Positions 36,742-38,955 of a stretch of DNA of 38,955 bases are shown here, one piece after another (the stretch's first letter is position 1; each line of letters opens with the position of its first letter). Below the pieces are notes generated by a model. It searched no databases, was not told where the DNA came from, and worked only from the letters and a program-made list of their open reading frames with translations. Position numbers and translations under genes: made by a program. The DNA is taken from positions 1 to 38,955 of the forward strand of contig JAJPIP010000032.1 in NCBI GenBank assembly GCA_021324655.1, read 5' to 3'. The stretch is from Pseudomonadota bacterium. Its GTDB lineage: Bacteria; Chloroflexota; UBA5177.

Positions 36742-37053
36742 ATGAAGCTGTCTGAGATGAAGAGTGCCGAGCACGTCCTCGCCGAGCAGCTAAAGGACCC
36801 CGCCTTCCGCGAGGAGTGGGAGCGGACCGCCCTGGCGCGGGCCGTGGCCGCGCGGGTGGTCGCATACCGCACCCGGGAGGGGCTGTCGCAGGCGGCCCTG
36901 GCCCGCAAGATGGGTGTGAGCCAGCCGCTCATCGCCCGTCTCGAGTTGGGCGAGCACGAACCAACGCTCACTACACTCACGCGGCTCTCGCGGTGCCTCG
37001 GGCTGGAGTTTCATATCGATATCGCGCCGAACTCGTTGCAGATCACGGCATAA
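36742..37053 (+). CDS. XRE-family antitoxin-like regulator (solitary)
   Basis: 103 residues. The N-terminal helical segment (AEQLKDPAFREEWERTALARAVAARVVAYR) and XRE helix-turn-helix (about 48-90; LSQAALARKMGVSQPLIARLELGEHEPTLTTL) are typical of antitoxins of HigA/RelB-like loci. AAGGAG lies 7 bases before the ATG. The usual neighbour, a RelE/HigB toxin of about 90-110 residues, is not seen upstream or downstream in the window. It may be a lone regulator or the leftover of a degraded pair. Confidence 0.85.
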   Translation: MKLSEMKSAEHVLAEQLKDPAFREEWERTALARAVAARVVAYRTREGLSQAALARKMGVSQPLIARLELGEHEPTLTTLTRLSRCLGLEFHIDIAPNSLQITA

Positions 37054-37295: not shown

Positions 37296-37476
37296 TCATC
37301 CCGTACGGTGGGACGGGGTAATGCTCGTCGTCTGTTCCGCCGCGTTGTATTTGAGGTTGTACCCCGAGCTGGTCCCCGTCTCGTTCCCGTTCCCAATCGT
37401 GGCTAGACGTGTTGCTGTTCGAGAGTGTCATCTCGTTCGCGTTGTTGTACGTGAGACTGGCGGAGGCGCCAGTCTC
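37296..37476 (-). pseudogene. Frameshifted Rhs/YD-repeat fragment
   Basis: Translating the minus strand in one frame gives ETGASASLTYNNANEMTLSN; after a one-base shift, another frame gives IGNGNETGTSSGYNLKYN and then AAEQTTSITPS before a stop at 37296-37298. Y-N-N-A-N, N-G-N-E-T and Y-N-A-A-E-Q-T are characteristic YD-repeat phrases. It is far shorter than a working Rhs protein and broken by an apparent single-base indel near GATTGGGAACGGG. Its first bases overlap the end of the zinc-ribbon gene. Confidence 0.55.
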
Positions 37477-37480
37477 ACGT
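37449..37480. repeat. Perfect 14-base hairpin at the zinc-ribbon / Rhs-fragment junction
   Basis: ACGTGAGACTGGCG (37449-37462) and CGCCAGTCTCACGT (37467-37480) are exact reverse complements with a 4-base loop. The stop of the zinc-ribbon gene (37475-37477) lies inside one arm. No U-tract follows on either strand, so it is not a textbook terminator. Confidence 0.75.
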
Positions 37481-37753
37481 GCGCTCCTTGCTCAGGATGC
37501 TTCTCCACCACCACACGGGGATGCTCGTTACTGCAAAGAGTGCAGCGAACGCGGTGACCCCTGCGTACGGGCTGCCTGTTACCTCCGCGACCAGCACGGC
37601 GGCAATATTTGACAATCCGAATCGGACCCACCATCGCCTCGCGCTCCGGCGTCGTCCCATCGCCGTTGGTTTCTCAAACCAGACCCCACATCGCGGACAC
37701 GGGTTGCCCGTCGTCTCGCGTCCGCATCCCGGACAGAACCAGTCGCTGCCCAT
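37475..37753 (-). CDS. Small zinc-ribbon membrane protein (possible immunity protein)
   Basis: 92 residues. A zinc ribbon, CPGC...CPRC, opens the protein (residues 6-24); after a basic linker (MGRRRSARRWW) there are two membrane helices (FGLSNIAAVLVAEVTG and VTAFAALFAVTSIPVWWW). AGGAG is 10 bases before ATG 37753. It sits 41 bases after a truncated Rhs gene on the same strand, where an immunity gene would be, but the sequence alone does not prove that role. It could also be a generic zinc-ribbon membrane protein. Confidence 0.6.
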   Translation of the reverse strand: MGSDWFCPGCGRETTGNPCPRCGVWFEKPTAMGRRRSARRWWVRFGLSNIAAVLVAEVTGSPYAGVTAFAALFAVTSIPVWWWRSILSKERT

Positions 37754-37794
37754 GCTCTCACCGCTCCTCTCGCCTTCGACCGGTCCCTCAGCTT

Positions 37795-38238
37795 CTACGG
37801 ATGCGCCGATAGGCGGTTCCAGTCGATCATGGTGCCGTAAGGGAGAATTACCGCCCGGCCGAATGCGTGGCGTACGGTGAACTTGGTGCAGAAGGTCTTC
37901 CATGCGAACGCGAAAGTAAGCTCGAAGTACGCAAGCGCCACCGCCGCCACCATCGCGGCCCGGTCGTCCTTATGCATCTCCTCCAGGGAGTCTGCCTTGC
38001 CCCAGCATACGGCGGAGCGGCTGCCGCCGAGATGCATGCCGTAGCCATATCCCGATGGATCCGTTGCGTTGACCGGATCATCCCCTTCGTACGAATAGCT
38101 AGTTCCGCCAGACACGCAGGTGGCCGGATCGGTCTGCGTGAAACTCCCGATCGCGGAGCGGTAGTACCTCGCTCCCAGCTTGTACCAGCCGGTGAAGCTG
38201 TCGTACACCCCGCTGATCCACTCGTACGGGTTGGGCAC
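37795..38238 (-). CDS. 5'-truncated Rhs core with unknown C-terminal tip
   Basis: The frame opens at a stop just before 38292 and contains VPNPYEWISGVYDSFTGWY-KLGARYYRSAIGSFTQTDPAT and YSYEGDDPVNATDPSG, the Rhs repeat-associated core that marks the end of a full Rhs/YD protein. After it comes a tip of about 80 residues (YGMHLGGSRSAVCWGKAD...TKFTVRHAFGRAVILPYGTMIDWNRLSAHP) with no family I recognise. In complete proteins the tip is a toxin released from the Rhs cage. Here the long shell is missing and the GTG at 38238 has a poor ribosome site, so this is an orphan cassette or pseudogene. Confidence 0.75.
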   Translation of the reverse strand: MPNPYEWISGVYDSFTGWYKLGARYYRSAIGSFTQTDPATCVSGGTSYSYEGDDPVNATDPSGYGYGMHLGGSRSAVCWGKADSLEEMHKDDRAAMVAAVALAYFELTFAFAWKTFCTKFTVRHAFGRAVILPYGTMIDWNRLSAHP

Positions 38239-38292
38239 ACTCCCGGTCTGGCTTGGCTTGTCACGTATCGGCCCACGAGCTCTTAATGTGCG

Positions 38293-38757
38293 TCAGCGTC
38301 CACGCCCTTCGAGAGCGCGGATCCGGCGCGCCGACAGCAGCAAATCTGTACCCATGGTGAGAAGGATCAAGGTCACGATGCTGATGCCCGGCACGATTCC
38401 CAGTCCAGCTAGCACCGTCCATACGGCCGCGAACGCCACGGGGACCCAGATCAAGACCCAGGTCCAGAGCGTAGCCGATCTGCGGTAGAGGTCGCCGTGA
38501 TCAGTGGGGTGGGCGCTACCAAGGCGGCGCCTCCAGATGGGCCAGCCAAGCCACGCGAGCACGCTCCCCAGCGCTACGGCTACAACAGACTCTCCAATCC
38601 CGAAGTAAAAGGCCGCAGACGGGACCGAGAGCCAGTTGTGGCGAGCCACCGCGACCGCAACATCCACCACACCGCAGACGACGAACGCTCGTCCGGCCAC
38701 CGTGGCCTGGATCCGCTCTCGCCCAGCGCGAGAGGACGTGAAGCTTCCGTCGTCCAC
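38293..38757 (-). CDS. Multi-pass membrane protein (hypothetical)
   Basis: 154 residues with about four membrane helices (near 20-36, 48-70, 96-120 and 122-142), basic loops (WRRRLG) and a basic tail (SARRIRALEGRGR). I recognise no family. The start is GTG with GAGG about 9 bases upstream. Its stop coincides with the point where the Rhs frame begins. It follows another truncated ORF tail on the same strand, so it has the position of an immunity gene, but this is only positional. Confidence 0.55.
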   Translation of the reverse strand: MDDGSFTSSRAGRERIQATVAGRAFVVCGVVDVAVAVARHNWLSVPSAAFYFGIGESVVAVALGSVLAWLGWPIWRRRLGSAHPTDHGDLYRRSATLWTWVLIWVPVAFAAVWTVLAGLGIVPGISIVTLILLTMGTDLLLSARRIRALEGRGR

Positions 38758-38763
38758 GGTCCC

Positions 38764-38847
38764 CTACCCTCCCCTCGGACAGTAGCCCTTAAGGCTGCAC
38801 ACGCGGTGGATGATGGTGTCCGAGTAGTAAGAGTCCCAGAGGTACAT
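38764..38847 (-). pseudogene. Tail of a truncated ORF next to the IS630 element
   Basis: A 27-codon tail beginning at ATG 38847 (MYLWDSYYSDTIIHRVCSLK...GYCPRGG) ends 6 bases before the membrane-protein GTG. It is protein-like (YLWDSYYSDTIIHRV) but far too short to be a gene. It is most simply read as the end of a longer protein, perhaps an Rhs tip, cut off by the transposon on the other side. Confidence 0.35.
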
Positions 38848-38871
38848 GGCTAGTATACTGTTACTCCTGAT

Positions 38872-38900
38872 TTGACCGTTTGGAGCGAGGTCGGTATGCT
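38872..38900 (+). promoter_or_regulatory. Promoter of the IS630-type transposase
   Basis: TTGACC (38872-38877) and TATGCT (38895-38900) are separated by 17 bases. The expected start of transcription is at 38907-38908, the A of the ATG, so the message would be leaderless. The upstream ATG at 38896 lies inside the -10 and is not used in this reading. Confidence 0.5.
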
Positions 38901-38907
38901 GGGCATT

Positions 38908-38955
38908 ATGCACAAGAAGTATCCTGTTACCCTGACCGACACCGAACGAGACCAG
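38908..38955 (+). mobile_element. IS630-type transposase, 3' partial (start of element)
   Basis: MHKKYPVTLTDTERDQ and then the window ends. The opening M-x-K-K-Y-x-V-T-L-T-D-x-E-R is the N-terminus of IS630-family transposases. Only the first 16 residues are visible, so catalytic residues and the other end of the element cannot be checked. The left end of the element should lie in 38767-38871, but I could not place its terminal repeat. Confidence 0.65.

What the first reader, a model, noticed from the sequence alone, without database searches (positions are those of the whole stretch)
37296..38895. Decayed Rhs region carrying orphan tips and candidate immunity genes
On the minus strand the order is: tail of a truncated ORF, four-helix protein, 5'-truncated Rhs core plus unknown tip, zinc-ribbon two-helix protein, then a frameshifted YD-repeat piece. 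Orphan tip-plus-immunity arrays are known for Rhs loci; here two small membrane proteins each follow a truncated toxin-like end. The tip (about 80 residues after DPSG) matches no family I know.
Basis: partly seen in the sequence, partly recalled or inferred. Interest (0 to 1): 0.65.

Follow-up and report, generated by a model that had tools for sequence, protein, structure and literature searches.

The report
Orphan Rhs toxin-tip module beside IS630
A broken-off end of a bacterial competition toxin, with a small probable protector gene behind it, sits next to a mobile element; this is a known kind of storage arrangement, but the toxin end and the candidate protector genes resemble nothing in the databases searched.

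Summary
On the minus strand there is a four-helix protein, a headless Rhs core (TIGR03696, E=2e-14) with an unmatched 84-residue tip, a zinc-ribbon protein with two weakly hydrophobic helices, and a frameshifted YD-repeat piece. Core and YD piece match one complete, probably secreted Rhs in the same genome (contig C30, 1532 aa): core 88% DNA identity, YD piece 71%. One element was misread. The "truncated ORF tail" is half the end of an IS630-type insertion sequence: the last 106 bases recur at the ends of three other contigs, and C30's left end is the IS's opposite end. The region is therefore probably a piece of C30's orphan array, cut by an IS and an assembly break. Three further core-tip modules follow the complete Rhs on contig C2, each with a small membrane-protein ORF behind the tip, so the arrangement is usual here. 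Most likely: an orphan Rhs-CT/immunity module with a short hydrophobic, perhaps membrane-acting, tip. No relatives of the tip or of either membrane protein were found (Pfam, NCBIfam, PHROGs, PADLOC, PDB, 460 genomes, plasmids), so the pairings stay inferences. Known kind, new sequences. A phylum-wide link between Rhs tips and membrane-protein neighbours did not replicate.

The parts
38850..38955 (.). End of an IS630-type insertion sequence (outward terminus TCAGGAGTAACAGTATACTAG), also the contig end
   Evidence: 106 bp identical at the ends of contigs C82 and C33, 99% at C27; sequences diverge right after ...ACTAG; opposite end carried by C30, C59, C7, C104, C38 with the same terminal motif; that end encodes a transposase C-terminus whose full-length relative scores NF033545 transpos_IS630 E=2.4e-40
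38764..38849 (-). About 28 codons of an open frame coming out of the IS; possible 3' remnant of an interrupted small ORF (weak)
   Evidence: open frame ending 38764; weak codon score -0.11 but best of the frames
38293..38757 (-). 154-aa four-helix membrane protein, candidate immunity protein
   Evidence: four hydrophobic segments KD 1.8-2.2; four helices in low-confidence AF2 model; coding signal; no family or homologue
38050..38286 (-). Headless Rhs core stub ending in DPSG
   Evidence: TIGR03696 E=2.3e-14; 88% nt identity over 144 nt to C30 Rhs; 74% aa over C30 residues 1367-1436
37798..38049 (-). 84-aa variable tip (candidate toxin), one hydrophobic helix
   Evidence: coding signal; KD 1.85 at residues 31-49; long helix 22-62 in low-confidence model; no homologue
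37475..37753 (-). 92-aa zinc-ribbon plus two weakly hydrophobic helices, candidate immunity protein, 41 bp after the tip
   Evidence: DZR E=0.013, sub-threshold; position; helices KD 1.3, best window 1.55
37449..37480 (.). Perfect 14-nt inverted repeat with 4-nt loop over the stop of the zinc-ribbon gene, terminator-like stem without a T run
37303..37470 (-). Frameshifted YD-repeat fragment of the C30-type Rhs (residues 1217-1275)
   Evidence: tblastn in two frames; 71% nt over window 37321-37460

Best explanation
This is a piece of an orphan rhs-CT/immunity array belonging to the genome's C30-type Rhs protein. Shown: a headless copy of that Rhs's core, joined in frame to an unrelated coding tip, is followed 41 bp later by a small candidate immunity gene, and further downstream by a decayed YD-repeat stub of the same Rhs; an IS630-type element sits at the upstream edge, where the assembly breaks. 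Inferred: the complete Rhs on C30 lay just upstream before the IS insertion, the 154-aa protein is the immunity gene of the ORF cut by the IS, and the zinc-ribbon protein is the immunity of the 84-aa tip. Working model: the orphan tip is silent or little expressed, the immunity genes can protect against siblings that use these tips, and recombination in the shared core can load the tip onto the complete Rhs, which is exported by a signal peptide. Its hydrophobic helix suggests the tip acts at the membrane; this step is the weakest.
For: Core and YD stub match C30's Rhs better than any other locus (core 72% aa against 47% next best; 88% and 71% nt; residues 1367-1436 and 1217-1275). Homology falls off at the DPSG boundary while coding signal continues. 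Contig C2 carries a complete 1838-aa Rhs followed by three more core-tip modules, each tip followed by a small TM-protein ORF. In the own genome 6 of 8 other Rhs tips are followed by a TM ORF against 44 of 152 control genes (p=0.012). C30's left end is the opposite end of the same IS. C30 Rhs has a hydrophobic N-terminal leader, DNRLRE, YD repeats and core, and its tip is followed by a HEAT-repeat gene (PF13646 E=4e-40), Imm-HEAT being a known immunity class (PMC3482391). The window tip is short (84 aa) and hydrophobic; in other genomes short hydrophobic tips are followed by a TM ORF in 9 of 11 cases against 44 of 152 controls (p=0.0008; 55 of 130 among other tips, p=0.023).
Against: No homologue of the tip or of either candidate immunity protein was found, so pairing cannot be tested by co-occurrence. 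The general excess of TM genes after Rhs tips seen in the relatives (47/78 against 44/152) did not replicate in an independent sample of the phylum (17/64). The 11 short-tip cases come from only five genomes, eight of them from two (G026, G299) of one family. The zinc-ribbon protein's helices and codon signal are weak. Five contigs carry the opposite IS end, so C30 is not the only possible neighbour. AF2 models are low confidence (pTM 0.32 and 0.34).
Confidence: 0.7

Rival explanations
1. Plain decay: the core stub and YD stub are debris of an inactivated second Rhs gene; the tip is a degraded C-terminus and the small membrane proteins are unrelated genes that happen to lie between them.
For: Frameshifted YD stub, IS insertion at the edge, weak codon signal of the zinc-ribbon gene, no homologues of the small proteins.
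Against: Core, tip and four-helix protein have intact frames and, for tip and four-helix protein, real coding signal; the YD stub lies downstream of the core that it should precede, which fits repeated modules better than one decaying gene; the same layout recurs intact on C2.
Confidence: 0.2
2. Same orphan module, but the tip is a soluble enzyme-type toxin (for example a nuclease) and the zinc-ribbon protein binds it through the ribbon; the hydrophobic helix is a buried core or a membrane-entry segment.
For: Many Rhs tips are enzymes; the tip has a polar C-terminal part with short strands in the model; three of the four C2 tips lack a strongly hydrophobic segment yet have TM neighbours.
Against: No enzymatic family match; the tip is short and half of it is one long helix, hydrophobic at residues 31-49.
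Confidence: 0.3
3. The window piece and C30 are two separate Rhs loci; the IS630 copies at their contig ends belong to different insertions.
For: Nine contig ends carry this IS (four of one end, five of the other), and the target CTAG gives no distinguishing duplication.
Against: C30 carries the best-matching Rhs of the genome and has the needed opposite IS end 250 bp behind the HEAT gene.
Confidence: 0.3

Closest known systems
Orphan rhs-CT/rhsI modules (Poole et al. 2011, PMC3150448)
   Same: Headless core fragment ending at the DPxG motif, unrelated tip, small gene behind it, several per locus; IS-interrupted orphan modules are described there for cdiA-CT
   Different: Tip and candidate immunity genes have no known relatives; the complete Rhs and the orphan lie on different contigs, so adjacency is inferred
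WapA-type secreted YD-repeat proteins
   Same: C30 Rhs: leader-like N-terminus, DNRLRE domain, YD repeats, Rhs core, polymorphic tip, following immunity-like gene
   Different: Tip and HEAT gene pairing not matched to a described WapA pair; the WapA comparison is from general knowledge
Membrane-depolarising tips with membrane immunity: Tse5/Tsi5, EsxX/ExiCD (PMC12744356), CDI ionophores (PMC11630599)
   Same: Short hydrophobic helical tip, small membrane protein next door
   Different: Not compared directly, no family match; the published ionophore tips are predicted five-helix bundles, here one long helix at low confidence; activity unknown
IS630 family insertion sequences
   Same: Transposase C-terminus with full-length relative scoring NF033545, inverted terminal motif, CTAG/TA target
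   Different: Interior of this copy is missing from the assembly

Membership tests
Orphan rhs-CT/immunity module | Core stub homologous to a complete Rhs of the same genome | tested here: met
   88% nt, 74% aa to C30 residues 1367-1436
Orphan rhs-CT/immunity module | Homology stops at the DPxG boundary, unrelated coding tip follows | tested here: met
Orphan rhs-CT/immunity module | No own translation start | tested here: inconclusive
   Frame opens right behind the upstream gene; first listed candidate start lies inside the core (GTG 38238)
Orphan rhs-CT/immunity module | Small gene directly downstream of the tip | tested here: met
   92-aa ORF 41 bp after the stop
Orphan rhs-CT/immunity module | Lies downstream of a complete Rhs gene | tested here: inconclusive
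   Contig break in an IS; C30 carries the other IS end, but so do four other contigs
Orphan rhs-CT/immunity module | Tip is toxic and the neighbour protects | not testable with these tools
   needs expression assays
Membrane-depolarising (ionophore) tip | Hydrophobic membrane-spanning helix in a short tip | tested here: met
   KD 1.85 at tip residues 31-49; a hydropathy prediction only
Membrane-depolarising (ionophore) tip | Sequence or fold match to Tse5, EsxX or CDI ionophore tips | not tested
   Not compared directly; no Pfam, NCBIfam or PDB sequence match and the model was too poor for a fold search
IS630 insertion sequence (window end) | IS630 transposase | tested here: met
   C-terminal peptide matches a relative (76% identity) that scores NF033545 E=2.4e-40 and DDE_3
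IS630 insertion sequence (window end) | Inverted terminal repeats and TA target inside CTAG | tested here: met
   nine ends share TCAGGAGTAACAGT(AT or GC)ACTAG; the TA duplication itself is inferred

The most novel reading that the evidence does not exclude
In this lineage some Rhs proteins carry very short (74-99 aa), hydrophobic, bacteriocin-like pore-forming tips stored as orphan modules with dedicated small membrane immunity proteins; the window holds one or two unseen pairs, one of them with a zinc-ribbon membrane immunity protein.
Probability: 0.3. Interest if true: 0.5.

Novelty: new member of a known kind. Interest (0 to 1): 0.3.

Why it matters
It adds an unmatched toxin tip and two unmatched candidate immunity proteins to the polymorphic-toxin repertoire of a little-studied phylum, shows IS630 insertion at an orphan array, and points to a small group of short hydrophobic Rhs tips with membrane-protein neighbours. 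The architecture itself is known.

Tried and rejected
Tip homologues: a 43% hit in G001 lies antisense to a UvrD-like helicase frame and was discarded as chance; other hits had E>0.05 in relatives. Genome contigs, viral contigs and plasmid searches found nothing. Hits of the four-helix protein to the middle of 650-aa proteins (E=0.001-0.004) were treated as composition. The zinc ribbon's weak hits to TFIID and Nop10 were treated as generic. Glycine-zipper motif: present in 37 of 67 long tips and 6 of 9 short hydrophobic ones by the loose pattern, so it does not discriminate and is not used as evidence. A general rule 'gene after an Rhs tip is a membrane protein': significant in the relatives, not in an independent sample of the phylum, so rejected as a general rule. 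Rfam: nothing. Direct overlap of C30 and C106 ends: none. Foldseek not run, because both models were too poor.

Full report
WHAT IS THERE. The window is contig C106 of a 3.8 Mb, 114-contig assembly, and the feature lies at the contig's right end. On the minus strand, from 38955 downwards: an IS end (38955-38850), a short open frame (to 38764), a 154-aa four-helix protein (38757-38293), an Rhs core stub without its head (38286-38050), an 84-aa tip (to 37798), a 92-aa zinc-ribbon protein (37753-37475), a perfect hairpin (37480-37449) and a frameshifted YD-repeat stub (37470-37303).

CORE AND TIP. The stub scores TIGR03696 at E=2.3e-14. It aligns with residues 1367-1436 of a 1532-aa Rhs on contig C30 at 74% aa identity and 88% at the DNA level over 144 nt; the next best Rhs in the genome is 47% aa. 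Behind DPSG the sequence is unrelated to C30's tip but still codes: codon score 0.16 in frame against -0.38 and -0.68 in the other forward frames, where true genes of this window have a 5th percentile of 0.12 and off-frame stretches a 95th percentile of -0.39. The tip has one hydrophobic helix (residues 31-49, KD 1.85), inside a long helix in a low-confidence model (pLDDT 61). No match in Pfam or NCBIfam; the only PHROGs hit over the tip is insignificant (E=0.16), PADLOC has none, and the best PDB hit is E=0.54. No relative in 60 near genomes, 400 genomes of the phylum, the species collection or plasmids.

THE TWO SMALL PROTEINS. The 154-aa protein has four hydrophobic segments and a real coding signal. 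The 92-aa protein has a CPGC/CPRC ribbon (DZR E=0.013, below the curated cut-off), two weakly hydrophobic helices and a weak codon signal. Neither has an accepted homologue.

THE MISREAD PIECE. The last 106 bases recur at the ends of contigs C27, C82 and C33 and diverge right after ...ACTAG. C30's left end is a second repeat, shared with C59, C7, C104 and C38, which ends in the same terminal motif and encodes a peptide matching the C-terminus of IS630 transposases. So both contigs end in the two ends of one kind of IS. Because the target is the palindrome CTAG, no target duplication tells which contigs pair. On the C30 side a frame is open right up to the IS, and on the C106 side a frame is open right from it.

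IS IT AN ORPHAN ARRAY? The same genome carries on C2 a complete 1838-aa Rhs followed by three core-tip modules, each tip with a small TM ORF behind it. Six of the eight other tips of this genome are followed by a TM ORF, against 44 of 152 control genes (p=0.012). Rhs cores occur in 151 of 400 genomes of the phylum, often many per locus. The YD stub downstream of the core corresponds to Rhs residues 1217-1275, which should precede the core; repeated modules explain that better than one decaying gene. Poole et al. 2011 (PMC3150448) describe orphan CT/immunity arrays downstream of cdiA and rhs genes, with varying amounts of upstream sequence, and IS-disrupted orphan cdiA-CT genes.

WHAT DOES THE TIP DO? 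Across 141 other tips, short ones (40-100 aa) with a hydrophobic segment are followed by a TM ORF in 9 of 11 cases (p=0.0008 against control genes, p=0.023 against other tips), but these come from five genomes, eight of the eleven from two genomes of one family. A broader claim, that any gene after an Rhs tip tends to be a membrane protein, held in the relatives (47/78) and failed in the independent sample (17/64). A membrane-acting tip is therefore a reasonable but unproven guess, by analogy with Tse5/Tsi5, EsxX/ExiCD (PMC12744356) and CDI ionophores (PMC11630599).

VERDICT. An ordinary orphan Rhs-CT/immunity module with unmatched sequences, at the edge of an IS630 insertion and an assembly gap. 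The phylum is not named by the tools.

Noticed in passing
window 38850-38955; contigs C27, C82, C33 / C30, C59, C7, C104, C38: IS630-type element present in several copies, its interior not found in the assembly, explaining at least nine contig ends
   Followed up: yes
L030 2213-12024 (G000:C2): Complete Rhs followed by three orphan core-tip modules, each with a small TM-protein ORF
   Followed up: partly
L028 358-5919 (G000:C30): Probably secreted WapA-like Rhs with DNRLRE domain; its tip is followed by a 314-aa HEAT-repeat gene, a plausible immunity gene
   Followed up: partly
G021:C38, G026:C32/C144/C23, G003:C96, G299:C1 (surveyed loci): Very short (74-99 aa), glycine-rich hydrophobic Rhs tips, most with a small 1-3 TM ORF downstream, resembling bacteriocin and immunity pairs
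   Followed up: partly
window 36742-37053 (+): XRE-type HTH regulator (HTH_3 E=2.7e-13) facing the orphan region
   Followed up: no
G327:C2 1346-1422 kb, G123:C2 562-619 kb, G207:C1: Large clusters of up to ten or so Rhs cores in single genomes of the phylum
   Followed up: no
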